From NCBI GenBank assembly GCA_964035015.1, contig OZ036001.1:13353783-13417782 (forward strand): a DNA stretch of 64,000 nt, given 5' to 3'. Below the pieces are notes generated by a model that was not told the DNA's origin, ran no database searches, and worked only from the letters and a program-made list of their open reading frames with translations. The stretch comes from Corallium rubrum. Lineage: Eukaryota; Cnidaria; Anthozoa; Scleralcyonacea; Coralliidae. The translations under genes were made by a program, and so were the position numbers. Shown in pieces: positions 15,697-58,904 of the stretch. Every line of letters starts with the position of its first letter. Positions within the stretch are counted from its first letter, which is position 1.

Positions 15697-15771
15697 CTTC
15701 CATTTCAGTGGCCGTAGTTCTTGATTCTTCTGCTGCTACAACAACAGTTTCATTTTCTGTTTTATTAGGAT
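15697..15771 (-). CDS. Receptor gene: cytoplasmic tail exon
   Basis: This 75-bp exon candidate is bounded by acceptor TTGTTTTAG and donor GTATAA. It enters with two bases and leaves with one, exactly complementing the one-base exit of the 7TM exon. The peptide is acidic and Thr-rich (NKTENETVVVAAEE, then TTATEMEG) with no recognised domain. It would replace the short RKC-stop ending available if the 7TM exon is read through. It may carry phosphorylation sites for desensitisation, which is inference. The next exon was not found. Confidence 0.5.
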
Positions 15772-16140
15772 CTAAAACAATAATTAACAGTTATAATAAT
15801 AAAGCTAAAAGGTTATATTTACAATGTAGGCCAAACGTTTCTAACTTTTAAGTTGTCATCACAAGTTAAAAAGTCAAGAGGAAGTGGCCTTTTTTATCAA
15901 GTAAATTGGTTTATGGGTCAGGTCGGGCCAGTTATATTAAACTCTTGACGACAGTTTAACTGCTCGTCGTGTAGTTAAATCGTAGTTATCTTCTGAATCG
16001 CTAGTTCTGGTTGGCTAGAATTAAGCTCTAACTACAATTAATGTTAACTTTATGATTGACTAGAATTTAACTATATATAACTACCGTTAACCTTGTTATA
16101 CAGCCGACTCCAGGTATTTTGTGTATGTGTATACCAGTGC
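15772..16140. other. Intron, unassigned
   Basis: AT-rich with repeated GTTAAC and TTAACT motifs (15950-16090). No exon or clear repeat is seen. Confidence 0.4.
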
Positions 16141-16145
16141 ATGGC

Positions 16146-16310
16146 GGTCGAAGAGCACGGGTGGCATGTGCTGTTAGGGCGCTGCATCTCACCAATATAT
16201 ATAGTACTTGGATAGGTGACCGTCGGGGAATAACCCGTTGCTCCGAGGGTTTTTCGCCGGGTTCTCCGGTTTTCCTCCCTCCGTAAAACCAACTGTGTCG
16301 TATGGCGACT
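16146..16310 (+). mobile_element. 5S-rRNA-derived SINE, partly deleted copy
   Basis: It starts GAGCACGGGTGGCATGTGCT and contains AGTACTTGGATAGGTGACCG, the box C end of a 5S rRNA gene, followed by the family body (GGTTTTTCGCCGGGTTCTCC). The segment between the two 5S promoter halves is shortened compared with the 36.5-kb copy. Confidence 0.75.
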
Positions 16311-16766
16311 GATATGCCTCGACGTGGCGACGGTGAAAAGCATTTGAGGCTTTGCAAAATGCGTGGCAAGGCCAAGAACTGTTCAACTTCCGATGCGTGT
16401 ACCAATACTGAATACGGTTCTGATCATGCGCAGTAGATCATCATATGCTTGCAGAAGTAAGACGTCTTCGAGGTTTATATTACCCGCCATGTTTCACAGT
16501 TTCAGTATTCGCATTCGAATTAACAAGCTAAGCTTAGCTTATTGGATTAATTTCGAATATGACAACGAATCCGAGGCGGAAGTGTAGAATATCAGTATTG
16601 GTATTCGCATCGGATGTCTGGCTTAACCTCCCCATTAGTATATTCCCCCCTGGGCAACAAAATTTTACGTCTTTTTAGCCCCCATGTTAAGGTATTTTGG
16701 GGAGGGGGGGAGCTTGGAGCCCTTCCTTTGGTCTGTACAGTATAACTACGATTTTCTAACACTTAC
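16311..16766. other. Intron, unassigned
   Basis: Contains a short inverted AAGCTTAGCTTA motif and pyrimidine-rich sequence. The + strand ORFs here have no domain features. Confidence 0.4.
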
Positions 16767-17794
16767 GTTTGCAACATCGCATCGCGATGCTTACAAACCA
16801 TTCTTTGCATCTAATCCAGTAAAAAGGAACGGTAATGGTGCTGACCAGTGGATTGATTGCAGAATTAACGGTTGCCACACAGATCGAAAACCAAGCATAA
16901 AATAGATTGTCCGTGTCAGTCATCTTTTCCCCAAGGGAAATGAAAATAAGCATAGCTATTGCAAACCAACAAAAAATATCAGTGAAGACGATAATAGCAA
17001 GCCTGCCAGTCATTTTGGGACCATTCTTAAGCTGGTGCCGTATGTCTGTCTTTTTGGAAATTATGCAAGCTGCGTAAAATATTGTGCAGTAGGCAATAGT
17101 CATGCCGCAAGAAACAATTAAGTTCAATGCTCCAAATATTGCTATACAGTATTCCCAAGCAGGATCTTTTTCACCAGGAAGTTGTAGCGGCACACACAAA
17201 CTGTTTGTGCCATAGTACCCTTCTCCTTTTTCCTCATTGTAAAAATAATTCTTGACTAAGGCAGGAATAACGGTGAGGACAAGAGACAGAAACCAGATCA
17301 GAGCTACAATGAATTTGACTGTAGTAGGTTCTATAGGCATATAAGACGGGCCATGCACGATTCTTCTATGTTGGTGATACGTAAGTACTGCCAAAGTCAG
17401 AACAGAAATTTCACTTGATAATAAGGACAAAACACCAAAACTTTTGCAAGCTGCACTTGAACGCCATTCACGATCATAAAGATAGTAGTTACCCCTCCAC
17501 TCTAGGTCTCTATTGACTATAGCAGCAACACATATCCCGATCAAAAAATCACCAATGCTCAGATTGAGGAGAAGAATGTTTTGAACATAATTAGTTTCCC
17601 GACATGCGATTCGTAAGATTATTGCAATTATGTTTCCTCCAAAGATGCCCACAAGTACTATCCATGCAATGTACCGTAGTCCTGCACTTTTTATCATCTT
17701 ATCGCAATCCGAGAAGGAATCAGGTGGCGCAATACAATTGATGTCAGGCCTCTCTTTGTTCACGAAGCAACATTGAGAAAAGTCGCTGGCTCTT
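16767..17794 (-). CDS. Receptor gene: hinge plus seven-transmembrane exon, relaxin-receptor-like
   Basis: A single exon of 1028 bp, entering with one base (acceptor TTGGTTTGCAG) and leaving with one (donor GTAAGT). The first 35 residues form an LGR hinge: CC, C, PP and C spacing ending FSDCD. Seven hydrophobic helices follow. TM1 carries GGN; TM2 reads NLSIGDFLIGI. The first outer loop and TM3 (WRGNYYLYD, then LSSEISVLTLAVLT) match the relaxin receptor pattern, as do YYGTNSLCVPL in loop 2, IVFTDIFCW in TM6 and NSAINPL in TM7. The TM3 E/DRY motif is replaced by a QHRR sequence, so G-protein coupling may differ. If the donor is ignored the frame stops three codons later (MRCCKRKC). The family is Gs or Gi coupled in vertebrates; the ligand here is unknown. 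Confidence 0.9.
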
Positions 17795-18379
17795 CTGCAA
17801 ACCAAGAAATAGATTGAAAACTGTTATTTCGATTATCTATCTTATCATTAACTCCGCTCCTCTCCGAATCGGTCTTTAGTATTTTATTCTGGCTAATGCG
17901 CGGATCAAATCGAAATGTCAACATACCCCCCCCCCCCTCGGGCATACATGGGGAATTTGGATTATTTTATTTTATATTGCTCAAATTCCCCACCTATGTT
18001 CTTTTCTCCCGTTCAAATATACCATGTTTTGGAAAAATTGGAGATCAAATGCCTCACCCTCAACGATTCTATACAAAAAATTCAAACAAATATTCGTTTA
18101 ATGCAAACTCTGTGAACATAAACATAAACATCAAAATCATTGTACATATCAGTTTCCAGAATTGAAAATGTCTTAGTCCTTGCTTTTCTGTTTGTTTTTC
18201 CTTCTTGTTTCCCGTGCTTTCTGCGCACCAAGCTCTTTTGTGATAAGCTTTTTCTTTAAATGTGAGTGAAATCAGAAATCGCCGCTATCGTGGCAAAACA
18301 TTTTTTTTAATTGTCACTGAGTATAGACATGGACAGTGAACATTTCAGTGAACTACTAGTAATAAAGACAGTTTCTTAC

Positions 18380-18460
18380 CTTCAAAGATTTGTTTTAACC
18401 TGATCAGACCGTTTTCTTCCAGCCACTCACAAGCAAAAGAAATATTTTGACCAGAAAAAT
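18380..18460 (-). CDS. Possible SAM-domain exon (first half), gene unknown
   Basis: The minus-strand frame contains CEWLEENGLIRLKQIFEG directly before a GTAAGA donor, which resembles helices 1-2 of a SAM domain (WL.ENGL..Y...F). An acceptor AATTTGTCAG gives an 81-bp exon entering with two bases and leaving with one. That phase cannot be spliced between the receptor's LRR and 7TM exons without a frameshift. The open frame also extends upstream to a Met at 18572, so it could be a first exon. No second half was found. It may be a stray exon or gene fragment carried by the surrounding repeat. Confidence 0.28.
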
Positions 18461-18478
18461 CTGACAAATTACGAGACG

Positions 18479-19030
18479 ATAAATACAGACTTGCTCCGGG
18501 CTCTGATTGGTTGCTCCGAAACAATGAAATCTTTCCACGACCACAGTATGATGGATCCGCACTTGTAAACAAACGATCTCGCTCAACGCTCGACCTTATG
18601 ATCTTATTAATAAGTTAGTAAGTATACATATGGTATACTATTTTTGGGATTATTTTGATTGTTTTTAGAAAACGGTGAGATTCTTATTCATATTATGGTA
18701 AACTTACCATAAGTCTGTATTTAACAGAACATTCGCCAGTATTATTCGACTACTTAGTTGTAGAATATTTACATCTATATATTTCCAAATACTAGCTAAA
18801 CTCTCACCATTTGCTTTTAACCACAACTATGGAAGGAATATTTTAATATCCTCAGAAAGGTTTTGTAACTATCGATCTGAAGACATTGCACGAAGACATC
18901 AGTGAGTCAGTGAGACCACGGCCATGCAGACCCATCATATCGTGGCCATGCAAAGATTTCATTGTTTCGGAGCAACCAATCAGAGCCCGGAGCAAATCTG
19001 TATTTATCGACTCGTGACAAATTCGCCGCC
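18479..19030. repeat. Inverted repeat with GCTCCGGGCTCTGATTGGTT arms
   Basis: 18479-18560 pairs with about 18935-19015, including CGGAGCAACCAATCAGAGCC. CCAAT-type boxes and a GCCGCCATTTTG motif near 19025 give it a promoter-like look. Confidence 0.7.
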
Positions 19031-19219
19031 GCCATTTTGAACAGAATCTGTTCAAATTCCCCACCCTCCACTGGGTTAGAGCGTCAAATTCCCGCCACCC
19101 TAAAATGCCGCACGATCAAATTCTCCAGGTATGCCCGGGGTGGGGGGTGGGGGTGGGGGGGATGTTGACATTTCGATATTTTATTCACCTCTGGGGAAGC
19201 CGTCGGACAGGAATGAGTT

Positions 19220-19535
19220 AAGCTGGTGGCTCGATAGGAAAAAGTTGTATTTTTCTCTTAAAACGTTTTGCAGTGTACGTTAGTGCCTCATTCTAGTTAT
19301 TTGCATAGCACTAGTGTCAGTGCTTATAATTGAAAAGTTTTACAGTTGCAGCATTTGTGTATCTCATGGACAAATCACATTTATTGTAATATGCAAATGT
19401 AATGCAAATTAGAATTTCTGAACAGTTACAAAACAAAGATTTCCGTCCCCACCAGAAAACAGTACACTGTCTAATATACTTTTCAAAATTCAAGAGTAAC
19501 ACTATATAGGGCTGTGCAAGGAACTAGAACGAAGC
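19220..19535. repeat. Dispersed repeat, MITE-free copy
   Basis: Its reverse complement aligns with 32445-33240. At 19514-19520 it keeps a single CTTGCAC site where the 32.5-kb copy has an insertion. Confidence 0.8.
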
Positions 19536-19654
19536 ACGAATCTACACCGTGAAACGTTTTAGAAGGAAAAATTTGATTGTTTATAGTTTTCTCTTATTGA
19601 GCGACCTTAAGAGCTTTTAGGCCAGTTATCAGACTATGACAAACCAGGTAATGA

Positions 19655-20911: not shown

Positions 20912-20986
20912 AATTCATTAAGATTTTTCATTTGCAACAAGAATCTCCAGTTTTTTATATAAAGACCAGGCATCCCAGAGATATCC
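20912..20986 (-). CDS. Receptor gene: LRR exon, block 2 repeat 4 (divergent)
   Basis: 75-bp exon, acceptor TTGTATAG, donor GTAAGTAG, entering with one base and leaving with two. The encoded repeat (DISGMPGLY, then FLLQMKNLNEL) keeps the C-terminal LRR consensus but has lost the Asn of the LxxN core and gained one residue. It is the last LRR before the hinge and 7TM exon, where capping repeats often diverge. Confidence 0.65.
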
Positions 20987-21060: not shown

Positions 21061-21248
21061 ATAAAACTTATTTTATAGTTAGCATTAATTTCAAAAACTC
21101 CAAACCTACAGTATTTTTAAATTTTCTAGGTTTTTCATACTGCTTGGATAAATTGTTTTGAGAAGATTATTTCCCAGATTTCTAAAGAAAGAAAAAAGAA
21201 GACATGGTTTTTAGTGTATATAATATACATGAGAAAATTTCTCAATTT
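21061..21248. repeat. Direct repeat, copy 1 of a 190-bp intron segment
   Basis: Nearly identical to 22888-23080 (AACTTATTTTATAGTTAGCA onward). Both copies lie 75-90 bp on the acceptor side of an LRR exon. Confidence 0.85.
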
Positions 21249-22727: not shown

Positions 22728-22799
22728 AAATATTCCAATTGATTTCCAGGAGAAAAGATTGGCTGGGGTAGCTTTTCAAGTATGTTGTTTGAAAGATCC
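22728..22799 (-). CDS. Receptor gene: LRR exon, block 2 repeat 3
   Basis: 72-bp exon between acceptor TTTATATAG and donor GTAAGTA. It encodes one 24-residue leucine-rich repeat (DLSNNILEKLP, then GNQLEYL), entering with one base and leaving with two. LRRs form the curved ligand-binding face of LGR ectodomains. Confidence 0.85.
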
Positions 22800-22887: not shown

Positions 22888-23080
22888 ACAAAACTTATTT
22901 TATAGTTAGCATTAATTTCAAAAACTCTAAACCTACAGTATTTTTAAGTTTTCTAGGTTTTTCATACTGCTTGGATAAATTGTTTTGAGAAGATTATTTC
23001 CCAGATTTCTAAAGAACGAAAAAAGAACACACATGTTTTTTAGTATATAGTAATATATTTATGAAAAACTTCTCAATTTT
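22888..23080. repeat. Direct repeat, copy 2 of a 190-bp intron segment
   Basis: See 21061-21248; the match spans almost the whole segment with few substitutions and one small indel near the end. Confidence 0.85.
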
Positions 23081-24852: not shown

Positions 24853-24924
24853 AATTCTTTCAGTTGCAATAATCCATAAAAGAAAGTTGAAGGTATCTTT
24901 GTAATTTGATTGTGTGCCATATTC
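24853..24924 (-). CDS. Receptor gene: LRR exon, block 2 repeat 2
   Basis: 72-bp exon between acceptor TATTTTTCAG and donor GTGAGT. It encodes NMAHNQITKIP followed by FYGLLQLKEL, a canonical 24-residue repeat, entering with one base and leaving with two. Confidence 0.85.
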
Positions 24925-25980
24925 CTGAAAAATAGTTAAATATTTTTTACTAGTAAAAAGAATTGCTTAGCTAATAGAAAAATCAGAAGTTTCAATTAAA
25001 ACTGAGTATTTGTCAAATTAATATATTATATGCAAACTTTAAGCCCTCCCGGATATAAGCCCACCTTCTCCCGTTAGCACCTTTTATAGTAAAAATAATT
25101 ACTGTTTTTGCACTTGCGTTATTAAGCAAAACGTTGAGCAATGAAGCGCCAACATAGTTTGTCTGTTGCGTTTTGAAACGTTTTTTCTACACCAGGGATT
25201 ATTTTAACGTGCAGTGATAACCAATTTGTGCACTGATAAATGAGATTTGTGCAGTGATAAGCGCAATTTTGTGCAGTGATAAATTTTCTTTAATATTTAA
25301 GAATGGGTGTTATTCGTGAAAGGATGGATTATAGTATGTACTGTGCCTTTGAACATAATTTCTGATGCATCAGAAATTATGTTCAAAGGCATAGTACATA
25401 CTATATTCCAACATATACTATTTAATATCAATATTTAAATTAGCAAATACACAATAAGACGATAAGTTAAACGACCCTGGTCCATTATCTTCTGATAACG
25501 TTAAGCGTACCGAAAACTAACAGCCTTATGCCCTTAATTTCAACTTTCAAGATACATGAATACAGCTACTATGGCAGGCCCTACCGCCCTAATAAACAAA
25601 ACGCTAGTGTTCTTACTATTTAGCCGGACTACCCAACGGTGCAAACCAGTCGACCCCATATAACATGCTTGAGGCTTCTCTCAGGTCGATGCGTCTGTGC
25701 GCGTGTGCTACTGTTTGACCATTGTTATTTTGAAAATGCGAATGCATGCTGTGCAAAAGGATTAAATTATTAAAAATTTGGAAAAGGAGGGCCGCTTAGT
25801 GTGACTAGTTGATTACTGACGAGCTCCCGAGCTACTCAGTGCTCCATCGATGTTTTGCTACTGAAGTTAAATTTTATGCCTTTTTCAAGCTCTTTGTGCA
25901 GTGATAAAAAATCCTTAGAATAATCCCTGTACACCACTTATAAGTTCCCCGGTTATAAGCCCATTCAAAAGAAGAGCAAA
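24925..25980. other. Intron; hairpin at 25330-25411
   Basis: 25330-25411 is a near-perfect palindrome centred on TCTGATGCATCAGA with ATAGTATGTACT arms. GTGCAGTGATAA recurs several times between 25208 and 25282 and once near 25899. No exon is seen. Confidence 0.6.
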
Positions 25981-25984
25981 AAGT

Positions 25985-26475
25985 TTTGTACCTGAAGATA
26001 CACCACTAAAAATGTATAAATCACTTGTTCTACCCCACTTTACATATTGCTCGACCATATGGAATGATGGCAATTGTACAAATATTGACAAATTATATAA
26101 ATTGCAAAAACGAGCTGCTCGAGTGATAACGGGTTCGACTTATGAAGTCAGATCAAACGATATTTACCAAAAACTAAAATGGGAACCAATTAAAACTATT
26201 CTGCAAGAACGAGAAGATTTAATGACATTCAAGGCCTTACAAAATATGACACCAAATTATTTATCAAATTTGTTCGTTACTAGTCATAATAATACATACA
26301 ATTTAAGAAGCAATGACCGAAAACTCTATTTAGAAAAACCAAACACAAACTTACCAGCTTCTCCTATCGCGGAGCTACGTCGTGGAATAAACTACCGATT
26401 GAAATTATCGAGAGCTCTGACTTATCAATTCAATCATTCAAAACATTAATTAACAAATACTATAATGAACAATAG
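25985..26475 (+). mobile_element. LINE reverse-transcriptase C-terminal fragment
   Basis: The frame 26012-26449 starts YKSLVLPHFTYCSTIW and continues with LQKRAARVITG, then L.WEPIKTIL and AELRRG. This is the thumb and C-terminal part of jockey/CR1-like LINE RTs. The catalytic YADD part is missing (5' truncation), and the coding continuity ends about one motif early in a frameshift (the GINYRLKLSR stretch replaces the usual WN.LP motif). Confidence 0.82.
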
Positions 26476-26752: not shown

Positions 26753-27117
26753 TCAGACGAAATTTTTCGGTTGAATTTAGCAGTGTAAGAAATCATGAAA
26801 AATTTACCTCATGTCTCTCAGAGGATGGTCCTGTAATGTTACCCTATAATTTATTTCTTCTTTCAAATAAGACAAACTTAATTTTCGTTTGATATATAGG
26901 CACTTTAAGTAATAAGGTGACTTTTCAATAGGTTAAGCTACACTGATACTCACAAGTGTGTCAAGTTTCTTGAAAATTTCAGCAAATTATTGTTTAGGTC
27001 ATAGATTGAGTTTGACGAGATGTCTCTATAAACACATACATGAAAATCATTAATATATGTATATGTGGCAGAGAAAAGTTAATTATTAGTATAGAGGATA
27101 GAGGATATTACACGGGA

Positions 27118-30282: not shown

Positions 30283-30357
30283 AAAGATTTCAATGCTGGA
30301 AAAGTAGCAAACAATCCAGTCCAGATTTTTCTTATCTTGTTATTAGATATGTTAAAC
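30283..30357 (-). CDS. Receptor gene: LRR exon, block 2 repeat 1
   Basis: 75-bp exon between acceptor TTATTGAAAAG and donor GTAAGTAT. It encodes FNISNNKIRKIW followed by FATFPALKSL, an LRR with one extra residue, as in the first repeat of block 1 (also 75 bp). It enters with one base, completing the Arg codon split from the second LRR cap, and leaves with two. Confidence 0.83.
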
Positions 30358-35903: not shown

Positions 35904-36251
35904 CTTCACTTCTGCATCGAACACCAGCGGTCTTGTTAGTACACTGATTAGCTATGTTGTCAGTACTGTGACCAGTTTTCAAACATTTTCTCAGATAATC
36001 TTCATTTCCAGTACACCTATAATCTTTAGATACCACAGTTTCATTCCAACTATAATCAGTTGGTTTTAAGATCAGTTCTTCCACTGCATCTGGAAATCCT
36101 AACTCTTGACATGTCACATCAGCATCAGCCTTTGTCCAGTTAACATCAGAAAACGGTCTCCAACCTTCATTGCCATAAACGTTAACAAGTCCTACTGAAG
36201 TGTGATTTGTTACATTAGCTCGAGTGTCTTTTTCTGGGATTATTCGTAAAC
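35904..36251 (-). CDS. Receptor gene: SRCR domain exon
   Basis: One exon of 348 bp, acceptor TGCTGTGTAG, donor GTATTT, entering with two bases and leaving with one. It encodes a full scavenger receptor cysteine-rich domain: LRII start, VNVYGNEGWRPF, DADVTCQELGF, YRCTGNEDYLRKCLKTG and NKTAGVRC. SRCR domains are extracellular binding modules. The Cys usual in the W-G-T-V-C-D-D segment is absent (WRPFSDVNW), so one group A disulfide should be missing and Cys in NQC may be unpaired. It continues the frame from the hinge exon at 39.1 kb and into the LRR cap at 32.2 kb. Confidence 0.88.
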
Positions 36252-39050: not shown

Positions 39051-39148
39051 CACATTGTTCATACGGCGGTGGTCTGTCATTGCACTCTACCAAGCCTCCA
39101 AGAGTTATCCTGTATGCATTACAACAATCAATTAAGCCACTGGTATAC
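39051..39148 (-). CDS. Receptor gene: first LGR-type hinge exon
   Basis: 98-bp exon, acceptor TCAACGCAG, donor GTAAGC, entering with one base (Leu codon completed from the last LRR of block 1) and leaving with one. The peptide YTSGLIDCCNAYRI, then VECNDRPPPYEQC, has the CC..C..PP..C spacing of the LGR hinge. The same pattern opens the 7TM exon. In an ordinary LGR this would lead into helix 1; here the frame goes into the SRCR exon. Confidence 0.78.
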
Positions 39149-40069: not shown

Positions 40070-40141
40070 AGAAACTGAAGCTTGGGCATTCTAGAAAATA
40101 CATCAGGAGGAATGACGAGTATCTTGTTTCCTGTGAAATAC
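40070..40141 (-). CDS. Receptor gene: LRR exon, block 1 repeat 9
   Basis: 72-bp exon, acceptor TTAAATATAG, donor GTAAGT. It encodes YFTGNKILVIPPDVF, then MPKLQFL, entering with one base and leaving with two. It is the last repeat before the first hinge. Confidence 0.87.
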
Positions 40142-40320: not shown

Positions 40321-40539
40321 AAATTAGACAAATTTCAAACGGCATTATTACCATGGTAACGGCAAATATTAGCACCATTCAAGAAATACTTCATAAGTGT
40401 TGTTCTCTTTCTGCAGTTCAGTATACAGAATAATTACGTAATAGTTATTTTAAAGACAGCAATGACTGAAGGAACAAGCCATGAAAAAACTAAAACTCTA
40501 GCGAGCCACCTTAACGCGTCTGTTAGAACAATGAAAATT

Positions 40540-42742
40540 GCATGGTACTCATTTGCATGGTACTCATTTGCATGGTACTCATTTGCATGGTACTCATTTG
40601 CATGGTACTCATTTGCATGGTACTCATTTGCATGGTACTCATTTGCATGGTACTCATTTGCATGGTACTCATTTGCATGGTACTCATTTGCGTGGTACTC
40701 ATTTGCATGGTACTCATTTGCATGGTACTCATTTGCAGGGTACTCATTTGCATGGTACTCATTTGCATGGTACTCATTTGCATGGTACTCATTTGCGTGG
40801 TACTCATTTGCGTGGTACTCATTTGCGTGGTACTCATTTGCATGGTACTCATTTGCATGGTACTCATTTGCATGGTACTCATTTGCGTGGTACTCATTTG
40901 CGTGGTACTCATTTGCGTGGTACTCATTTGCAGGGTACTCATTTGCACGGTACTCATTTGTATGGTACTCATTTGCAGGGTACTCATTTGCATGGTACTC
41001 ATTTGTATGGTACTCATTTGCGTGGTACTCATTTGCGTGGTACTCATTTGCGTGGTACTCATTTGCAGGGTACTCATTTGCACGGTACTCATTTGTATGG
41101 TACTCATTTGCAGGGTACTCATTTGCATGGTACTCATTTGTATGGTACTCATTTGCGTGGTACTCATTTGCGTGGTACTCATTTGCGTGGTACTCATTTG
41201 CACGGTACTCATTTGCGTGGTACTCATTTGCATGGTACTCATTTGCGTGATACTCATTTGCACGGTACTCATTTGCAGGGTACTCATTTGCATGGTACTC
41301 ATTTGCATGGTACTCATTTGCATGGTACTCATTTGCACGGTACTCATTTGCACTGTACTCATTTGCATGGTACTCATTTGCATGGTACTCATTTGCATGG
41401 TACTCATTTGCATGGTACTCATTTGCATGGTTACTCATTTGCATGGTACTCATTTGCATGGTACTCATTTGCGTGGCACTCATTTGCATGGTACTCATTT
41501 GCAGGGTACTCATTTGCATGGTACTCATTTGCACGGTACTCATTTGCACGGTACTCATTTGCATGGTACTCATTTGCGTGGTACTCATTTGCACGGTACT
41601 CATTTGCGTGATACTCATTTGCACGGTACTCATTTGCATGGTACTCATTTGCACGGTACTCATTTGCGTGATACTCATTTGCACGGTACTCATTTGCATG
41701 GTACTCATTTGCACGGTACTCATTTGCATGGTACTCATTTGCACGGTACTCATTTGCGTGATACTCATTTGCACGGTACTCATTTGCAGGGTACTCATTT
41801 GCGTGGTACTCATTTGCATGGTACTCATTTGCATGGTACTCATTTGCGTGGTACTCATTTGCACGGTACTCATTTGCACGGTACTCATTTGCACGGTACT
41901 CATTTGCGTGGTACTCATTTGCACGGTACTCATTTGCATGGTACTCATTTGCACTGTACTCATTTGCGTGGTACTCATTTGCATGATACTCATTTGCATG
42001 GTACTCATTTGCATGGTACTCATTTGCAAGGTACTCATTTGCACGGTACTCATTTGCATGGTACTCATTTGCATGGTACTCATTTGCATGGTACTCATTT
42101 GCATGGTACTCATTTGCACGGTACTCATTTGCACGGTACTCATTTGCGTGGTACTCATTTGCACGGTACTCATTTGCATGGTACTCATTTGCACGGTACT
42201 CATTTGCAGGGTACTCATTTGCGTGGTACTCATTTGCACGGTACTCATTTGCAGGGTACTCATTTGCACGGTACTCATTTGCACGGTACTCATTTGCAGG
42301 GTACTCATTTGCGTGGTACTCATTTGCACGGTACTCATTTGCATGGTACTCATTTGCATGGTACTCATTTGCACGGTACTCATTTGCAGGGTACTCATTT
42401 GCGTGGTATTCATTTGCGTGGTACTCATTTGCATGGTACTCATTTGCATGGTACTCATTTGCATGGTACTCATTTGCATGGTACTAATTTGCATGGTACT
42501 CATTTGCAGGGTACTCATTTGCATGGTACTCATTTGCACGGTACTCATTTGCATGGTACTCATTTGCGTGGTACTCATTTGCACGGTACTCATTTGCAGG
42601 GTACTCATTTGCATGGTACTCATTTGCACGGTACTCATTTGCATGGTACTCATTTGCAGGGTACTCATTTGCATGGTACTCATTTGCACGGTACTCATTT
42701 GCATGGTACTCATTTGCATGGTACTCATTTGCGTGGTACTCA
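40540..42742. repeat. 15-bp satellite array, about 147 copies
   Basis: Unit GCATGGTACTCATTT. Nearly all differences fall in the three bases after TTTG (CAT, CGT, CAC, CAG, TAT). Only one phase-breaking insertion is seen, an extra T near 41431. Between about 40877 and 41146 a nine-unit pattern (135 bp) is repeated twice. As 15 is divisible by 3 and stops are lacking, very long ORFs exist on both strands (MSTMQ-type on the minus); I treat them as artefacts. The array lies in the intron between LRR repeats 8 and 9 of the receptor gene. Confidence 0.97.
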
Positions 42743-42744
42743 CA

Positions 42745-44109
42745 GGGACTGAACATTCAGCAGTTTGTCGAAGACACCCAAAAGCACGACAGATATTTTG
42801 TTGTTGTTTAGACGTCTAAATACAAAATCAGATAATTATATTATATATATCTGAGGCTGTTCATTAAAGTAGATTTTTAGTAAATGTTTAAAACACAAGC
42901 AGCAGAATTTTATTAAGTTAAAGTCCATATAAACCAAATTTTTTATCATCTGCATACGTTCTACATACAGCAAATCGTTGTTCAGTGAAATATTTTTTTG
43001 ATTGCAGCTATTCTTCAATGTTTTTTGGCGATTCGTATTTCTAGTGCGGTAATGAGATGATGTATATATGTAGGCATTTGGCTTCCTTCTCTTTTTGGCA
43101 AGATAAACTACCTGAGAATTTTTGTGGAAAAACTCATACAATATGGAACATGTTGTTCAAACACACCATTAATGGAAGAATTGGGTCATGCCACTCCTGC
43201 AAATAACTGATATTTGTATAGATAATGATGACTACTTTGGCGTCATCCATTACCATTCCGAAAACAAAAACTAAAGCAATAAAGGTTGCTCCAATCTAAA
43301 TCTAAATCTCCAAACTCCTTTATTTGTTCAACTATTTGCCAAAGGTAGAACGTATTTAGATGATAAAAAATTGGGTTTATATCGCACATTAAAACACGAG
43401 TAGCAGTGTTTTATTAAGTTTAAATATTCTTTTGCTTTAATTCATTTGCAAATTACGATGACAATTTTATATAAAATGACCTGACCTCATGTTGACTGAC
43501 AGGAGAGCAAAACACGGCAGAGTTGGAGAAAAGCTGCGTGTATGCGGGTACCACCCGGAGGAAGGTTTACTTTAGTGAGGAAGGTTTAAAGTGAAAACAC
43601 GTGAAACAACACATTCGGTAATCTGAGAAAGTTACAACTGACCAAGCAAGGTGTCGAGAAGAAAAGCGATTTGCAGCAAAACATTGGCTAACCAACAATT
43701 ATGCAGGACTGGCAGTGGCAGCAGTTAGTGATGTCTGTAATCTTCGCAGCAGTCGAGGGTAGTTAGTAGGCTGTCAGTCAGCAGCGGTCAGTTATTAGTA
43801 GCTATTGTAAGTATACCAAAGCGTACCTATATAGGAAAACCTAGAAAACCAAGGTACTGTAAAAGTCACGCAGTATTTATGAATGTTTCAAGACACAAAA
43901 TTCTCGCTATATATTTTGAGGAAGGTTATCTAAACTTAAAAACCCATCCGGAGGAAGGTTGAGTACTTTTTCCAACACTGAAAACACATTATTTTGCTCT
44001 GATGAAAGCCTGAGTCAATAGGTCGAAAGCTCAGCCATAAATTAATAATAAGCGTAATAATAATGAGATGTTTTTACAAATTCTCGCTTCTAATCAATGT
44101 GATACTTAC
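42745..44109. other. Intron, unassigned
   Basis: AT-rich with no exon-like segment. Near 43997 it holds CTGATGAAAGCCTGAGTCAA, a short motif shared with 48.37 and (inverted) 55.78 kb. Confidence 0.45.
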
Positions 44110-44181
44110 AGAAACTGAAGGTTGGACATATTCGAAAATATGCTCACATGAATGGTGGATATTGTGTTGTTGTTCAAGTAT
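44110..44181 (-). CDS. Receptor gene: LRR exon, block 1 repeat 8
   Basis: 72-bp exon, acceptor TATATATAG, donor GTAAGTAT. It encodes YLNNNTISTIHVSIF, then MSNLQFL, in LRR phase. The donor-side end is very like repeat 9 (AGTTTCTGTAAGT on the transcript strand), suggesting a neighbour duplication. Confidence 0.87.
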
Positions 44182-45622: not shown

Positions 45623-46815
45623 CGGATCTCTATGCAACTGGATTGCTCATCCACAATATGGTCAGCACTAAACACTTTGAAGCCAATGGCGGCCATATTG
45701 GTAATCCAGGTCCAGTGTACTTTGCGGTCGTAAAAGTAGTAAGAGTTTACAGGGAGTAGTAAAAGTCGTAAAACAATTGTCAGATGCCAATTTATCATTA
45801 CCACTGGAAAACAGAATTGAGATACAAATACAGTCCGGAATTCAGTCAACTACATACTTCAAGGCTTTGTGAAGACATGTTTTACTACCAAAGGTATATA
45901 AATACTTTTATAACGAAGTTATTGACTGATTTCCTTTGGGGTTTTTTACGAGTTTTGTTATATAGGCAAGTTTATCGATTACCGGGCAGAGTAAAAAACT
46001 ACGAAATAAAACGTTTAATTGCTTAAATGCTTAATAATACTAATAAATGCAAAAACTAAGCTTCTAAACATTTTACAGTGTTCCTTGTTTGATACCAATA
46101 GCAAAAAATGTCTTAATGTAGCTCTTTTCATTTTATTTTTATTCATTCTATTTTATTAACTTCGCCATATGTAACATACATAGAAATAAACATAGAAATA
46201 ACAGCAGGTTTAACAATGGCAAGGGAACCGCAACAGCGTTAGCCAATTACTGTGGGCCCTAAACATACAAAGGATATAGAGAGATAACTATGAACAATAA
46301 AATTACAGTACATTATAAGTATTACATAATTACATACAACAAGAAATGGGTCAGTGAGACTCCGAACAGAGTTGCACTTGAGACAAATTGTTTTAAACGT
46401 GCGAGGGTCTTCACAATTATAAGAAGTTACCAACGGTAAAAAATAATACTTAAGCATAACTGATTTAAATAAAGAAAGAGTATCTGTGTTGAGGTCAAGT
46501 TTGTCTGCAAGAGATTTCCAAATTCGGCAGGTTCTGATGACGTAGGATTTTTGATAGGTAGTTGTTTTACATTTACGAATGATGAATTTACTTGTGTTGC
46601 CATTAGAGGATCTAGTTTGTCTGTATGTACGGATAACTGGAAGAACGGAAGATTTTAAACTGATTAATCCATGTGTTATTTTGTAAAAGAAAACCATGTC
46701 TAAATACTCGTGCGAAGTTTCCGTGGCGGCCATCTTGGTACTCCAAATTCGTCATCTCCAGTCACTTCATTTTTGGAGCCGAATGAGCAATCCAGTTATA
46801 CACAGAGATCAGTGC
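45623..46815. repeat. Foldback-flanked segment carrying a LINE fragment
   Basis: GGATCTCTATGCAACTGGAT near 45624 is mirrored by ATCCAGTTATACACAGAGAT near 46790, and both ends carry a GGCGGCCAT motif further in. The LINE remnant below lies inside. Confidence 0.6.
46239..46733 (-). mobile_element. LINE reverse-transcriptase C-terminal fragment
   Basis: The minus frame reads DMVFFYKITHGLI, then KFIIRKCKTTTYQKSY and RIWKSL, with a VRSLTDPF-type tail. This is the C-terminal region of a LINE RT. The RT core and endonuclease are absent. Confidence 0.75.
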
Positions 46816-47854: not shown

Positions 47855-47926
47855 AGGTAGAGCAGATTAAATAGTTTTGAAAATGCATCAGAAGGAATGA
47901 CTGATATTTTGTTGTTTGAAAAATCT
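47855..47926 (-). CDS. Receptor gene: LRR exon, block 1 repeat 7
   Basis: 72-bp exon, acceptor ATTTTTAG, donor GTAAGTAA. It encodes DFSNNKISVIPSDAF, then LFNLLYL, in LRR phase. Confidence 0.88.
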
Positions 47927-48486: not shown

Positions 48487-48558
48487 AGGAAAGATAGTTT
48501 GTGGATATCATCAAACAGACCTGGAGGAATGACGGTTATTTTATTCTTTGACGAATCC
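48487..48558 (-). CDS. Receptor gene: LRR exon, block 1 repeat 6
   Basis: 72-bp exon, acceptor TTTAATCTAG, donor GTAAGT. It encodes DSSKNKITVIPPGLF, then IHKLSFL, in LRR phase. The acceptor is 36 bp from the Harbinger-type MITE at 48594. Confidence 0.87.
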
Positions 48559-50200: not shown

Positions 50201-50204
50201 TGCC

Positions 50205-51971: not shown

Positions 51972-52043
51972 AAATAATTTAGGCTGTGCAATGAAGCAAA
52001 CGCATCAGAAGGAATAACAGATATTTGATTGCTTGACAAATCT
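51972..52043 (-). CDS. Receptor gene: LRR exon, block 1 repeat 5
   Basis: 72-bp exon, acceptor TCTAG, donor GTAAGTAT. It encodes DLSSNQISVIPSDAF, then LHSLNYL, in LRR phase. Confidence 0.88.
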
Positions 52044-52570: not shown

Positions 52571-52642
52571 AGATGCTCTAGGTTTGTCAGTTTGTCAAAC
52601 ACGCCCACAGGAATAACAGATATTCTGTTCTTGTACAAGTCT
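52571..52642 (-). CDS. Receptor gene: LRR exon, block 1 repeat 4
   Basis: 72-bp exon, acceptor TATTATCTAG, donor GTAAGTAA. It encodes DLYKNRISVIPVGVF, then LTNLEHL, in LRR phase. Confidence 0.88.
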
Positions 52643-53475: not shown

Positions 53476-53547
53476 AGGTACTGTAATTGGGACATATTAG
53501 CAAACACACTCAGAGCAATGACAGATATTTCGTTTGTAGACAAATCT
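53476..53547 (-). CDS. Receptor gene: LRR exon, block 1 repeat 3
   Basis: 72-bp exon, acceptor TAAATTTAG, donor GTAAGTAC. It encodes DLSTNEISVIALSVF, then MSQLQYL, in LRR phase. Confidence 0.88.
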
Positions 53548-53960: not shown

Positions 53961-54006
53961 AGAACGTTTACTTTAAAACGAGGTCATTATAATAAGGCTA
54001 ATCACT

Positions 54007-55465
54007 GACCTATATATATAACTGGACTGCGTCTCCTATTACCTTTGAGTTAGGAAAAGTGTCCCCATTTTCACTTTCAAAATGGCGGCATTTATGGGTC
54101 CTTTTGCTAATGGTGAAGGTCGCTGACCGATACCTAAGATCTCTAGTTCGTGTTGGACATGTTCGGTATTTCGCTTTTTTTAAGAAAACTAAGCTATTTG
54201 GTCGGATAAACTGTACGTATGTTGTAGCAAGATGAATTATCTTTCTTCCAGTATATTTGATAGCTTCTACAGTGGTTTATTTCTCGAGAAAACGTTCGGA
54301 GAAAACATTATAATACATACGGAAAAAAATTTCAAAATAGTGGTCGCTATTATGATTTGGACATGTTCGGTATTTCGCTTTTTAAGGGAAACTAAGCTAT
54401 TTGGTCGGATAAACTGTACGTATGTTGTAGCAAGGTGAATTATCTTTCTGCCAATATATTTTATAACTTCTACAGTGGAGTATTTCTTAAGAAAACGTTC
54501 GGAGTAGACGGACTAGGCAAACTTTGTCGAATTTTTGCCAAATCAGCATAATATCGTCCTGGTCTCGAGTTTGTGTAAACAAAATATTTCGGTGGTTTTT
54601 CATTCATGTATATTTAATATTTATGTTTGTTGCTGAGCGGCCCGGGATGTTTTCATGATAAGAGTCTTATTGTAGTTCTGAACTACAATAATAATAATCC
54701 TAGACTATTACAGTTGTAGCTTTCTACGAACACTTCGCAATAAAATAAACAAGACTGTCAATACACATGGTCATGGAAATCTACAAACGTTTTGTTTTAT
54801 GAAGTCGCCAGTTCTATAAGGAACCGCTAAAGATCACGAGAAAATCGTAAAGAAGCGAGGCGTACCAAGTTCTTCTTAGGGGCTGTTTACATGGGAGGTG
54901 ATATTCCTATTTGGTCAGACAAATAATCCAGCAGGCCTCTTGAGTCATTCCACAAGAAATTGACAATGACCAACCTGCATGCATTAACTCTTTCCTGTCC
55001 GAATTTATTGCTCTTTAGACGATTTTATTCACCTCTTGGGGAAGCCTTCACAGGTACAATTTTTAAACTATGTCTCTAACTCTTTCCCGTCCGAATTGGT
55101 GTTTAGTATTTTATTCTGGCTAACGCCAGACGATTTTATTCACCTCTGGGGAAGCCCTCGGACAGGAACGATTTATAAACGATCTCTCTAACTCTTTCCT
55201 GTCTGAATTGGTGTTTAGTATTTTATTCTGGGTAACGCCAGACGATTTTATTCACCTCTGGGGAAGCCCTCGCATACGAACGATTTATTAATAGAGTAAG
55301 AAAATCGCTTTGTATTTACAAAAATATTCTGTTTCTCTACAATAAGTACATGTCAGTGGTCGCTACCATTAGCAGAAGGACCCATAAATGCCGCCATTTT
55401 GAAAGTGAAAATGGGGACACATTTTTGGCCAGCACCTGCAGTCCAGTTATATATATAGGTCAGTG
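54007..55465. repeat. Long foldback enclosing direct repeats
   Basis: Ends TATATATAACTGGACTGC and CAAAATGGCGGCATTTATGG at 54010-54105 have complements at 55375-55460. Inside are a two-copy 195-bp repeat (about 54155-54310 and 54355-54505, starting TTGGACATGTTCGGTATTTC) and three copies of a 115-120-bp unit at 55000-55285. Confidence 0.82.
55000..55285 (+). repeat. Tandem units with CTGGCTAACGCCAGACGATT
   Basis: Three direct units carrying TTTAGTATTTTATTCTGG, the palindrome GGCTAACGCC and CACCTCTGGGGAAGCCCTCG. The same core appears singly at 17.87, 19.18 and 56.59 kb and doubly at 57.11-57.27 kb. Confidence 0.85.
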
Positions 55466-55576
55466 GGGCTAATTTATATGCACGTAAACATTTTTGAAGT
55501 GTCCGCCATTTTGGTGAATAACAATTTTTACATATTTCATTATGTAGCTTTTATAAAGAATAGTTGACTAACTTAC

Positions 55577-55648
55577 AGTTTTTGTAAATATCTCAAGGTA
55601 CCAAATGCGTTAGACTGAAGGACCGATATCTTGTTGTCTCCCAAATCT
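55577..55648 (-). CDS. Receptor gene: LRR exon, block 1 repeat 2
   Basis: 72-bp exon, acceptor CAATCTACAG, donor GTAAGTT. It encodes DLGDNKISVLQSNAF, then LRYLQKL, in LRR phase. Confidence 0.88.
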
Positions 55649-56078
55649 CTGTAGATTGAAATAAAGAAATAATTTAGACTGGAAACCCAACATATGAAAT
55701 TTATAGCTTTTAAATTATAGATACGTTTTGTGGAAACACCACGTAAAAGATTTATTTGCTAAGCTTTCGATCGGCCTGTTGACTGCAAGGGCTTCATCAG
55801 AGCAATAACAACAAGACGCCCGCTAGGCGTTAACTCGGGCTACTTTAATTAGTGGTCGCATCGTTCGTTCAAATAAAGCTTGAAAAGATTATATAGTTGG
55901 TTTATAGTGAGTTCTGTTTCTTTCCTGTTTCTAAGACTAATTAAACAGCGGCAATTTTTCCTGTTTTAGGAGTGAAACAGCCTAACTGTTTTGCTCAAAA
56001 ATGTAAGCTGATCGAAGCAAACTAAGGTCGTCGTGCATTCTGGTAAAAAAGTGCATAAACGCGATGAGAAAATTAACC

Positions 56079-56378
56079 ATAGATATACAAAGGGGAACTG
56101 GATAGGAAACTTAAAACGATGTTACGAAACCGGAAACGGTGTTTACACAACTTGCCATGGTAATTATACACTTATAAGCGGCTAATTGTACCTAACGGGT
56201 GGTCCCACATGGCTACGATCAGCTATTGATGAAATTAAACAATAGTGTAATATCACTTAAGTTCAGTAGTGTCTGATGGTAGCCATGTGGGACCTTCCGT
56301 TAGGACCATAGCAAGTTGTGCAAACATCGTTTCCGGTTTCGTAAGTTTCCTATCCAGTTCCCCTTCCATTATCTATGA
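56079..56378. mobile_element. Palindromic MITE, third copy of the 14.7-kb family
   Basis: Begins ATAGATATACAAAGGGGAAC, ends with CCAGTTCCCCTTCCATTATC; the inner arms are largely intact, with the AGCCATGTGGGACC centre. Confidence 0.82.
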
Positions 56379-56705
56379 ATTAACAAAACAAAAACCAAGG
56401 CGAAACCTAGGCTCATGCTACCACAGTGCCCCAAGTAAATATATACAGAACAACAATGTATTATCAATTTTTTATATCTATTTATTAAGAATTGAAATGA
56501 ATGTTGTTATTGCTATATATACTGTAATATTGTACTTTTCTCGAAATTGTTTTTTAGCCACAGTTGCTTTTTGTCAACTTTTTAATTTTACTCTCGCTAA
56601 CGCCAAACGATTTTGCTCGTCAAGGGAAAAGCTCCCAGAAACCTGACCTGCAATAAAGGATTAACCCCATATATCTATATTGGAAATAATGAAACTCGTA
56701 CGTAC

Positions 56706-56780
56706 AAGGTTTCCAGATTTGGGAATTGTTGCAGATTAAACTTGGAGACGCTCTTTATATGATTTCCAGTCAGGTAATAA
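56706..56780 (-). CDS. Receptor gene: LRR exon, block 1 repeat 1
   Basis: 75-bp exon, acceptor ATTTTCAG, donor GTACGT. It encodes YYLTGNHIKSVSKF, then FPNLETL. Like the first repeat of block 2 it is one residue longer than the rest. It enters with one base, completing a Ser codon from the cap exon. Confidence 0.82.
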
Positions 56781-57084
56781 CTGAAAATGCAAAAGAAAAA
56801 CAACAAACATTATTTTTTAATGGTAGTATTGTATCATGTCAAACTCCGTTAGCAATTCCGTTATAACTTATGCGAATAATTAGCTTCAAATTTGAACAAA
56901 TTGTCTTTCACTCCTCCAAAATTTGGCCGCCATATTTGTTTATTTTGTTGCAAGAAATTAACATCCGTCAAAATCCGATGTAGAACGTAATTGTCTCTTT
57001 TCAGTTAGTTTCAGTAATTTTTATTAGCTCGTTGGCTTAAAAAATATTACAACGCATTTCGTTTTTTTTGCATTACATGTATTT

Positions 57085-57305
57085 TCTTAACACTTTGAAG
57101 CCTGAAGACGAATCTTTAGTATTTTATTCCGGCTAACGCCAGACGATTTTATTCAGCACAGGGAGAGGTCCAGGCCTCAAAGTGTTAAAACCTATCTCTT
57201 CAATACTTTGAAGCCTGAAGACGAGCCTTTAGTATTTTATTCTGGCTAATGCCAGACGATTTTATTCAGCACAGGGAGAGGTCCAGGCCTCAAAGCGTTA
57301 AAACG
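57085..57305 (+). repeat. Two direct copies of a 115-bp unit
   Basis: Each copy has TTTGAAGCCTGAAGACGA, TTTAGTATTTTATTC, the GGCTAA(C/T)GCC palindrome and GGGAGAGGTCCAGGCCTCAA. Confidence 0.87.
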
Positions 57306-57404
57306 GGACTGCTTTCAGCTTATCAAACTTGAGTATTTGTTTTATGAATATTGCTAACTTTACAGTAGAAATTCTTTGTTCGTTTACTTATTGATATGTC
57401 TTAC

Positions 57405-57546
57405 CTTGTAACAGATTTATTTACATATTTAGACCGAAGATCAGGCATTTTTGGTAGTACTCTATTTGAGCAATCAATCGAGATGCGATAAAGATTCCAA
57501 TGGTCTCGTCTGCATGTGCAAAGTTCACAGATGCCACTGTGATTAC
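57405..57546 (-). CDS. Receptor gene: first LRR N-terminal cap exon
   Basis: 142-bp exon, acceptor TTTCCACGCAG, donor GTAAGA, entering with two bases and leaving with AG. The peptide contains CELCTC, then IDCSNRVLPKMPDL: an LRRNT cap with C-x2-C-x-C and a longer spacer to the last Cys than in the second cap. NKSVT gives a possible N-glycosylation site. Confidence 0.83.
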
Positions 57547-57560
57547 CTGCGTGGAAATGA

Positions 57561-58080
57561 TTATTTTAGATATAACGTTACATTACGCGACCCTGGAAGT
57601 TGACATGCATGTGGCATGATGCGAGTTTTATAGCAATTTGTTGTCACAAAATGGCGGACATCAATACGATTAGACTTCCTCCAAGTCCGCCTCTTAGCGC
57701 TAGTTTTTGCGGGCGAGCGGAAAGGCGGGAGAGCGGGAGGAAAGAGGCGGACTTGTTTCGCTTGCAGATTTTTGAATCTAATTAAATATTCTGGCGGGAA
57801 ATCGCTGAAATGTACATCGCCCTGTTTTGACGTGTTTCGGGTTGTCGTACATGCAATAGAAAGTGGTTCTACCCCTACTAAAACGTTTTCAAGAGTCTGT
57901 TTAACTCCAACTTTCAAAGATAGCACTTGCATAGCAATTTAGCCTGAATATAATTACTTCCCGAATTACGTCACCGGTCGTTAAATTCACCGGTGAATTT
58001 TCGAAAGGTCAAAAATGTTTGAAAAGACGATCTGAGTCAGAATACAATGAAATGAGGATATTGATGAATTATTTAACCAA
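57561..58080. other. Intron, unassigned
   Basis: A minus-strand 123-codon frame (57561-57932) lacks any recognisable domain and begins near the MITE cluster. I do not call it a gene. Confidence 0.4.
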
Positions 58081-58125
58081 ATAAGAATGCAATCCATGGG
58101 AATGTTGAATACGATGACAAAGTAA

Positions 58126-58577
58126 GTTCAACCTCGTCCCCAGGGCATTTTGCCTCCACGTTGGGAGTCGGCGAAAATGGCCCTGGCATCGGCTGGTCAC
58201 GTGACACCCATGCGGTCTTTGTGTTTCGTTTTTGTATAATGCGTATACAAGAATAATAAATAAGAAATATTTAACGCTCTGCCGAATCACTCATGTGATT
58301 CTTTATCATAAATGCAACTGGCTAGTATTATTCATCATGATACTCCCCACGATTATCCAGGATACATTTAAATGTCGGGAAGAAACATATATCTAATGTT
58401 GTTCTTGACTTTAACCAAAGCTATCGTTACAATTCTTTGGATGAACTTCGCAGAGTGGATTTATTGCAATTCATATTTTGATGAATAAATTACACTGTAT
58501 CTGAATTAATCAAGTTTTTAAACCGGCCAATCCGATTATAGAATCGACCAGCCGATGTCAGGGCCATTTTCGCCGAC
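58126..58577. mobile_element. MITE of the 7258 family, right end lost
   Basis: Left end CAACCTCGTCCCCAGGGCAT. The interior matches the reverse complement of 7300-7740 including GCCGAATCACTCATGTGA. TACGATGACAAAGTA lies on both sides (58110-58124, 58578-58592). Confidence 0.8.
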
Positions 58578-58805
58578 TACGATGACAAAGTATAAGTTAT
58601 TTTGAATTGCCATAAAACTCATGTCGACTGCAATATTTCCGCCTTGGTCGCATAATTTTGAAAACAGGATGTAAAAGCTGTTACTTAAAAAAGGCCTCGT
58701 TCACACCATACCGGATACGTTTTCGTACCGGCACAAAAATACCCAATATAGTGTGAGCGGCAGTATAATGTGAAAAGTTAAGTAATTTATATTAGTACAT
58801 TGTAC

Positions 58806-58904
58806 CATATTCTTTTGCGTTTGTCCAACCATGTGAAATGCTTGATAAAATAAAAAACAATATGTACGTTGTCCCAGACATTACTTGGTATTCTTGGATT
58901 GATG
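58806..58904 (-). CDS. Receptor gene: start and signal-peptide exon
   Basis: The acceptor CTTTCTTTTTACAG is at 58905, followed by a 23-base 5' UTR and ATG at 58881-58879. The peptide MSGTTYILFFILSSISHGW is a classic signal peptide (short n-region, hydrophobic core, small residues). Coding bases 58806-58881 leave with one base, matching the two-base entry of the LRR cap exon (joined codon Gly). The donor TATG/GTACAA is weak; an alternative in-phase donor is CATG/GTTGGA 18 bases upstream. The acceptor upstream of the ATG implies a further non-coding exon beyond. Confidence 0.6.

What the first reader, a model, noticed from the sequence alone, without database searches (positions are those of the whole stretch)
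15697..58904. Receptor with two LRR blocks separated by an SRCR domain, ending in relaxin-receptor-like helices
About 18 hand-found minus-strand exons join in frame into signal peptide, LRRNT, 9 LRR, hinge, SRCR, LRRNT, 4 LRR, hinge, 7TM, tail. Known LGRs have a single LRR block; type C LGRs add LDL-A modules. I know of no LGR with an SRCR domain between two capped LRR blocks, and two blocks suggest two ligand surfaces or a tethered partner. The exons and phases are seen in sequence; the single-transcript model is inference.
Basis: partly seen in the sequence, partly recalled or inferred. Interest (0 to 1): 0.87.

Follow-up and report, generated by a model that had tools for sequence, protein, structure and literature searches.

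The report
Double-headed hormone-type receptor with scavenger domain
An animal (coral-like) genome encodes a hormone-receptor-type protein that carries two complete outer heads joined by a scavenger-type domain and whose switch motifs have changed, so it may catch signals rather than pass them on.

Summary
On the minus strand 24 exons (not about 18) join in frame into 1041 aa: signal peptide, LRRNT, 10 LRR (not 9), hinge, SRCR, LRRNT, 7 LRR (not 4), hinge+7TM, tail. The 7TM is closest to RXFP1 among solved structures. One gene was inference; relatives in the same genome now support it. A sister on contig C8 (7TM 41% identical) has the same order, LRRs – hinge – SRCR – LRRNT – LRRs – 7TM, with matching phases at the hinge-1 and LRRNT2 exons, though its SRCR exon is frame-broken in the assembly. 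Two further relatives have SRCR exons directly before LRRNT-LRR-7TM. So SRCR before the LRR cap marks several receptors here, and the doubled ectodomain is shared by two sisters. New: this copy alone lacks the DRY arginine, CWxP proline and NPxxY tyrosine that 8 of 8 compared relatives keep; a second haplotype agrees. Best reading: an atypical LGR that captures ligand rather than switching G proteins. There is no RNA evidence. The papers searched showed no SRCR-bearing LGR. New variant of a known kind.

The parts
58806..58904 (-). exon 1: start codon at 58881, signal peptide MSGTTYILFFILSSISHG..., phase 1 out (weakest exon)
   Evidence: donor score lowest of 23
57405..57546 (-). exon 2: LRRNT1 (CELCTC...DC), phase 1 in, 2 out
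56706..56780 (-). block 1 LRR 1 (75 nt)
55577..55648 (-). block 1 LRR 2 (72 nt)
53476..53547 (-). block 1 LRR 3
52571..52642 (-). block 1 LRR 4
51972..52043 (-). block 1 LRR 5
48487..48558 (-). block 1 LRR 6
47855..47926 (-). block 1 LRR 7
44110..44181 (-). block 1 LRR 8
42744..42815 (-). block 1 LRR 9; its donor is the first unit of a 2.2-kb minisatellite
40070..40141 (-). block 1 LRR 10
39051..39148 (-). hinge 1 exon, LGR-type CC...C...C hinge cut before TM1; phase 2 in, 1 out
   Evidence: C8 counterpart
35904..36251 (-). SRCR exon, phase 1-1, 5 cysteines
   Evidence: Pfam SRCR 57.3 bits
32198..32309 (-). LRRNT2 exon (CKVCNC...DC), phase 1 in, 2 out
   Evidence: counterparts
30283..30357 (-). 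block 2 LRR 1 (75 nt)
26954..27025 (-). block 2 LRR 2
24853..24924 (-). block 2 LRR 3
22937..23008 (-). block 2 LRR 4 (duplicate exon, copy 1)
22728..22799 (-). block 2 LRR 5
21110..21181 (-). block 2 LRR 6 (duplicate exon, copy 2, identical protein)
20912..20986 (-). block 2 LRR 7 (75 nt); read by eye, the one LRR exon not found by the relatives' profile
16767..17794 (-). hinge 2 and 7TM exon; HQH for DRY, CWFA for CWxP, NPLVS for NPxxY
   Evidence: Pfam 7tm_1 96.7 bits; RXFP1 best
15683..15771 (-). last exon: cytoplasmic tail and stop
   Evidence: identical on C291

Best explanation
[quoted passage not shown] It belongs to a group in which SRCR modules sit just before the LRR cap, the place held by the LDLa module in relaxin receptors. 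In this gene and its sister on C8 a second LGR ectodomain (LRRs and hinge, here with its own cap, cut before TM1) stands upstream, joined through phase-1 introns, giving head 1 - SRCR - head 2 - 7TM. In this copy the 7TM has lost the arginine of DRY, the proline of CWxP and the tyrosine of NPxxY. I therefore think it works as a membrane-anchored capture receptor: head 1, SRCR and head 2 bind ligand (one at two sites, or two ligands), which is sequestered, internalised or handed on, with weak or no classical G-protein switching. Shown: exons, phases, domains, sister-gene order, motif loss on both haplotypes. Inferred: single transcript (about 0.85), second ectodomain by fusion, capture/decoy mode (about 0.5), every statement about ligands.
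For: In-frame 24-exon model and domains. Sister C8: five LRR exons, hinge-1 exon YTSGFSDCC (2/1), SRCR, LRRNT2 exon (1/2), five LRR exons, 7TM on one strand. C15a and C20: several SRCR exons, then LRRNT2 (1/2), LRRs, 7TM. Tree: window+C8 96/96, the five-gene group 90/94. No signal-peptide-like start with a phase-1 donor in the hinge1-SRCR or SRCR-LRRNT2 introns. Switch residues R3.50, P6.50 and Y7.53 kept in 8 of 8 relatives, 0 of 3 here; the C291 haplotype lacks them too. Reading frame and splice sites intact on C291 over 8 of 8 exons covered. Precedent: decoy chemokine receptors with degraded DRY, and sites in CWxP and NPxxY flagged (PMC3405870, passages).
Against: No transcript evidence. 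The C8 SRCR exon is frame-broken in the assembly, so SRCR may not be needed in every double-headed copy, and no LRRNT1 was found for C8. RXFP1 itself has lysine, not arginine, at the DRY position (EKY), so that loss alone does not exclude signalling. No ligand or uptake data. The SRCR has 5 cysteines and lacks an early one that 7 of 8 aligned SRCRs have. On C291 the 4 differences in the 7TM exon are all amino-acid changes, which could also mean decay.
Confidence: 0.5

Rival explanations
1. Same single gene, but an ordinary ligand-activated receptor: the SRCR or head 1 takes over the tethered-activator job of the LDLa module and the odd 7TM still couples to G proteins or arrestin.
For: SRCR stands where LDLa stands in RXFP1, where the LDLa module is essential and may act as a tethered ligand (PMC4561518, passages). 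RXFP1 lacks the DRY arginine and is in the PDB as a Gs fusion. N1.50, D2.50 and the two extracellular cysteines are kept (numbering recalled).
Against: P6.50 and Y7.53 are lost as well, unlike RXFP1 and 8 of 8 relatives.
Confidence: 0.3
2. Two neighbouring genes: a secreted LRR-hinge-SRCR protein (58.9-35.9 kb) and a separate LRR-7TM receptor (32.3-15.7 kb).
For: The SRCR exon reads on into GIYS-stop just past its donor, so an unspliced end would give a secreted protein; the intron between is 3.6 kb; 3 AATAAA motifs lie in it, but 57 lie in the 14-60 kb stretch examined.
Against: Same order in C8; SRCR directly before LRRNT2 in C15a and C20; no signal-peptide-like start with a phase-1 donor in that intron, though 4 of the 9 other introns tested also have none.
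Confidence: 0.1
3. A decaying gene: the 7TM has lost its switches because the gene is becoming a pseudogene.
For: Longer branch than C8 (0.96 against 0.50); relative-rate chi2 above 3.84 with 3 of 7 outgroups; on C291 the 7TM exon has 4 replacement and 0 silent changes against 2 and 7 in the LRR exons, Fisher p 0.021, post hoc.
Against: 24 of 24 exons are open with intact splice sites; over 517 codons the haplotypes differ by 7 silent and 6 replacement codons on about 335 silent and 1216 replacement sites, ratio about 0.24 (ratio by hand).
Confidence: 0.1

Closest known systems
Relaxin receptors RXFP1/RXFP2 (type C1 LGR)
   Same: 7TM best match among solved structures (RXFP1 127.8 bits, next FSHR 73); LRRNT-LRR-short hinge-7TM; an extra cysteine-rich module before the LRR cap.
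   Different: SRCR instead of LDLa, two LRR blocks each with cap and hinge, NPxxY and CWxP lost.
GRL101 (type C2 LGR)
   Same: LGR with a series of small cysteine-rich modules besides the LRRs.
   Different: GRL101 was found with twelve LDLa repeats and six LRRs (PMC8286064, passages); here SRCR and a second LRR ectodomain.
'Novel' cnidarian LGRs outside types A, B and C (Nematostella)
   Same: Expanded LGRs with odd LRR counts; Nvec-LGR-8 has 4 LRRs and its own hinge (PMC9545775, first of two parts of its LGR section).
   Different: No SRCR or doubled LRR block is described in the part read ('scavenger' 0 hits in the main text); its Nvec-LGR4 extras are CUB and fibronectin II.
SRCR-bearing adhesion GPCRs of amphioxus
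   Same: An SRCR domain in the ectodomain of a GPCR (PMC2246102, passages).
   Different: Adhesion family, not LGR; no paired LRR blocks in the passages read.
Atypical (decoy) chemokine receptors
   Same: Degraded DRY and changes in CWxP/NPxxY in receptors that bind without signalling (PMC3405870, passages).
   Different: Different class A branch and ligands; no large ectodomain (recalled); uptake is not shown here.

Membership tests
LGR family (LRR-containing class A GPCR) | capped LRR ectodomain, cysteine-rich hinge, rhodopsin-type 7TM in one protein | tested here: met
   one transcript is inferred, supported by C8
LGR family | a single LRR block | tested here: not met
   two blocks, each with cap and hinge; two LRR blocks with a hinge between also in C8
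Type C LGR / relaxin receptor | 7TM closest to RXFP | tested here: met
   RXFP1 127.8 bits, FSHR 73, LGR4 33
Type C LGR / relaxin receptor | LDLa module at the N-terminus | tested here: not met
   none in the joined protein at E 0.01, none by pattern in the window; an exon outside the window is not excluded
Type A LGR | 7TM closest to FSHR/LHR/TSHR | tested here: not met
SRCR domain, group A or B | SRCR profile above cut-off | tested here: met
   57.3 bits, cut-off 26.1
SRCR domain, group A or B | six (A) or eight (B) cysteines (numbers recalled) | tested here: not met
   5 cysteines; an early cysteine present in 7 of 8 aligned SRCRs is missing here and in the C15a SRCR
G-protein-switching class A receptor | R3.50, P6.50, Y7.53 (numbering recalled) | tested here: not met
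   Q, A and S here; R, P and Y in 8 of 8 relatives; RXFP1 lacks R3.50
Decoy / atypical receptor (works like) | binds and removes ligand without classical signalling | not testable with these tools
   only the motif loss was seen

The most novel reading that the evidence does not exclude
A lineage of animal LGRs uses SRCR modules in the place of the relaxin receptors' LDLa module, and one branch captured a complete second LGR ectodomain. One member then lost the 7TM switch motifs and became a two-headed, membrane-anchored trap or co-receptor for relaxin- or glycoprotein-hormone-like ligands: a decoy LGR beside a switch-competent sister.
Probability: 0.4. Interest if true: 0.78.

Novelty: new variant of a known kind. 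Interest (0 to 1): 0.6.

Why it matters
How relaxin-type LGRs are switched on by a small module before the LRR cap was still called unknown in a 2015 review (PMC4561518, passages). A group of receptors with SRCR domains in that place, sometimes several, and in one branch an entire second ectodomain, is a natural experiment on that question. SRCR domains are common in proteins linked to recognition of microbes and debris (PMC6321704, passages), so the join also puts an immune-type module on a hormone-type receptor. A pair of sister genes, one with intact switch motifs and one without, makes the decoy idea directly testable.

Tried and rejected
Two-gene reading: looked for signal-peptide-like starts and TM-plus-stop ends in the 35.9-32.3 kb intron; 0 starts and 1 end with a poor acceptor, where the 9 other introns had 0 or 1 such ends each. 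Poly(A) motifs: too many to be informative. LDLa: none found in the window; the genome-wide LDLa list (150 of 213 candidates scored) shows none in this stretch of C15, but weak ones would be missed. Block 1 as a query to the genome found its own exons and generic LRR matches (E up to 1). The hinge-1 piece alone found nothing among solved structures at E up to 10. Exon duplicate as assembly artefact: rejected, both copies are on C291. A structure prediction was not run: the tool takes the window's own sequences as the DNA gives them, the joined ectodomain is spliced, and the relatives' loci are not of the kinds its description names; a lone exon would say little.

Not settled: whether C15b (C15:6.37-6.40 Mb) has an SRCR (LRRNT2 at 6371103, none in the 4.8 kb before it); the N-terminus of C8 (5 block-1 LRR exons seen, no LRRNT1 found); whether C37 and C52 have SRCR beyond the 10 kb fetched, since their LRR exons run close to the edge of it.
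Full report
What was checked. The window is C15:13353783-13417782 of an unnamed 474-Mb animal genome in 312 contigs. I read the minus strand for exons. LRR exons here are 72 or 75 nt, flanked by AG and GT, phase 2. Scans gave block 1 exons at 56780, 55648, 53547, 52642, 52043, 48558, 47926, 44181, 42815 and 40141, and block 2 exons at 30357, 27025, 24924, 23008, 22799 and 21181. A seventh at 20986 was read by eye. Caps are at 57546 and 32309, hinge 1 at 39148, SRCR at 36251, 7TM at 17794, tail at 15771, first exon at 58904. Joined, these 24 exons give an open frame of 1041 aa with GT/AG at every intron.

Is it more than chance? A profile made only of relatives' LRR exons found 16 of 17 window LRR exons on the minus strand and none on the plus strand at score 8 or more. 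The first profile, built from window exons, gave 15 hits on the minus strand, one on the plus strand (its weakest) and none in 5 letter-shuffles. In six relatives' loci, 0 LRR exons lay on the strand opposite the gene at score 10 or more (that profile included some exons of those loci). In 4 of these loci 1 further hit scored 3-10, on the gene strand. Pfam finds LRR, SRCR and 7tm_1 above cut-off. The SRCR exon alone scores 57.3 bits; it is missing from the 150 genome hits (150 of 196 candidates scored), whose lowest score was 58.3.

What the protein is. The 7TM exon matches RXFP1 (127.8 bits) far better than FSHR (73) or LGR4 (33). Hinge 1 (CC...C...C, 4 cysteines) is built like hinge 2 (4 cysteines). 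By sequence the link is weak: the C8 hinge-1 piece matches hinge 2 of C15b and of C8 at E 0.034 and 0.45, among unrelated hits down to E 0.17, and hinge 2 of C52 at 0.065. Hinge 1 is entered in phase 2, as hinge 2 is, and then cut by a phase-1 intron before any TM helix. So head 1 looks like a whole LGR ectodomain, not just extra LRRs. That it came by fusion is inference.

Relatives in the same genome. The 7TM query found 16 matches at E 0.001 or better, itself included. C291 is a second haplotype of the 3' half (below). Next is C8 at 41%. There, on one strand, lie five LRR exons (50460800 to 50451167), a hinge-1 exon reading YTSGFSDCC (50450945-50450842, phase 2/1, donor gtaagaag), an SRCR (50450041-50449783), an LRRNT2 exon (50446440-50446308, phase 1/2), five LRR exons and hinge 2/7TM (exon ends picked by eye among the candidates listed). 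The C8 SRCR exon starts after an acceptor in the same phase but its frame is interrupted in its 5' half in this assembly, and a DNA search with it found only itself. No LRRNT1 or signal peptide was found for C8. C15a (7TM 34%) has an SRCR exon 7275331-7275657 (1/1) before LRRNT2 7276557-7276671 (1/2), and at least three more SRCR-like exons upstream. C20 (40%) has at least five SRCR-like pieces and LRRNT2 11965421-11965307 (1/2). No LRR exon lies before LRRNT2 in the 26 kb (C15a) and 32 kb (C20) examined, of which about 11 and 20 kb lie beyond the outermost SRCR seen. C37 and C52 have LRR exons in the 10 kb fetched for each; the one SRCR hit below E 0.05 there (C37, E 0.038) is a simple repeat with a stop. 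Their LRR exons run to near the edge of what I fetched, so their N-termini were not seen. C15b has LRRNT2 at 6371103 and no SRCR in the 4.8 kb before it. Of the nine 7TM loci compared, SRCR stands upstream in four: window, C8, C15a, C20. The other five were not examined to their N-terminal ends.

Tree. Nine 7TM rows: window+C8 96/96; window, C8, C15a, C20, C15b together 90/94 (below the tool's mark for firm support); C37+C52 98/99 (the C15b row holds its first piece only and fills 44% of columns). So the four loci with SRCR fall in one group, and the doubled ectodomain in one sister pair.

Second haplotype. C291 carries exons block 2 LRR 2 to the tail, 8 of 8 with intact sites; introns differ by insertions. 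Over 517 codons there are 13 differing codons: 7 silent, 6 replacing; about 335 silent and 1216 replacement sites, so the ratio is about 0.24 (by hand). The 7TM exon has 4 replacing and no silent change, against 2 and 7 in the LRR exons (Fisher p 0.021; post hoc and tiny). C291 ends before the SRCR and head 1, so I could not test their constraint.

Switch motifs. Column by column, the window has Q, A and S where 8 of 8 relatives have R3.50, P6.50 and Y7.53; in C15b the arginine codon spans an intron. The motifs read HQH, CWFA and NPLVS; C291 reads HQH, SWFA and NPLVS. RXFP1 reads EKY, CWIP, NPILY, so the first loss alone is not telling, but the other two are. Position numbers are recalled conventions. 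The window branch is about twice C8's (0.96, 0.50); relative-rate tests exceed 3.84 with 3 of 7 outgroups, not with the other 4.

One gene or two? Phase agreement alone is weak, since phase 1 is common at module borders (recalled). The C8 order and the SRCR-LRRNT2 neighbourhood in C15a and C20 carry the argument. Also, no signal-peptide-like start with a phase-1 donor lies in the 39.0-36.3 or 35.9-32.3 kb introns; of 10 introns tested 5 had none, so this is modest support. I put the single gene at about 0.85.

Mechanism. In RXFP1 ligand binds the LRRs while the N-terminal LDLa module, joined by a linker, is essential for activation and may act as a tethered ligand (PMC4561518, passages). Here SRCR occupies that place. 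In C8, with switch residues intact, SRCR or head 1 might do that job, though its SRCR exon is broken in the assembly. In the window gene the switches are changed, so the simplest reading is capture: two heads and an SRCR on a 7TM anchor, like decoy chemokine receptors, whose DRY is often degraded (PMC3405870, passages). A soluble LGR4 ectodomain acting as antagonist (PMC4154783, abstract) shows that LGR heads can trap ligands. Binding, uptake and ligand are all inference.

Known or not. Searches of the open-licence paper library: 'SRCR' with 'relaxin receptor' gave 0 papers. Five broader searches and one on corals showed no SRCR-bearing LGR in the titles and abstract starts listed. The cnidarian scavenger-receptor survey has 0 mentions of GPCR, 7tm, LRR or leucine (PMC5119243, term search); a starfish and an ambulacrarian relaxin-receptor paper have 0 mentions of SRCR (PMC11863921 and PMC8286064, term searches). 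Placozoan CTLD-GPCRs (PMC6321704, passages) and amphioxus adhesion GPCRs with SRCR (PMC2246102, passages) show that immune-type modules on GPCRs are known. Subscription papers, most preprints and protein databases were not searched, and other cnidarian proteomes were not available, so automatic database models with this order may well exist.

Noticed in passing
40538-42742: A 147-copy, 15-bp minisatellite fills most of the intron after LRR exon 42815-42744, and its first unit (GTGAGTACCACGCAA) is that exon's splice donor; 144 other units read ATGAGT, so only the first offers GTGAGT.
   Followed up: partly
23083-22885 and 21252-21058: An LRR exon and its surroundings (200 alignment columns, 92.5%) are duplicated, with identical exon protein in the window; both copies are on both haplotypes.
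   Followed up: partly
L002/L013/L014 (C291:50001-68825): An unplaced contig collinear in pieces with window 6.5-27 kb, with intron and repeat insertions that differ between the two: read as a second haplotype.
   Followed up: partly
25919-26449 (+) and 46239-46751 (-): Open frames that look like retrotransposon reverse-transcriptase remnants, judged by eye.
   Followed up: no
C23:7.81-7.96 Mb, C61, C152, C15:14.53-14.73 Mb: Large clusters of SRCR matches in this genome.
   Followed up: no
L015-L018 (C8:50449783-50450146): The sister gene's SRCR exon is frame-broken in the assembly while its hinge-1, LRRNT2, LRR and 7TM exons read open; being phase 1-1 it could be skipped in frame.
   Followed up: partly
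window SRCR 36251-35904 and L032 (C15a): The SRCR next to LRRNT2 lacks the same early cysteine in both genes, while 7 of 7 other aligned SRCRs have it.
   Followed up: no
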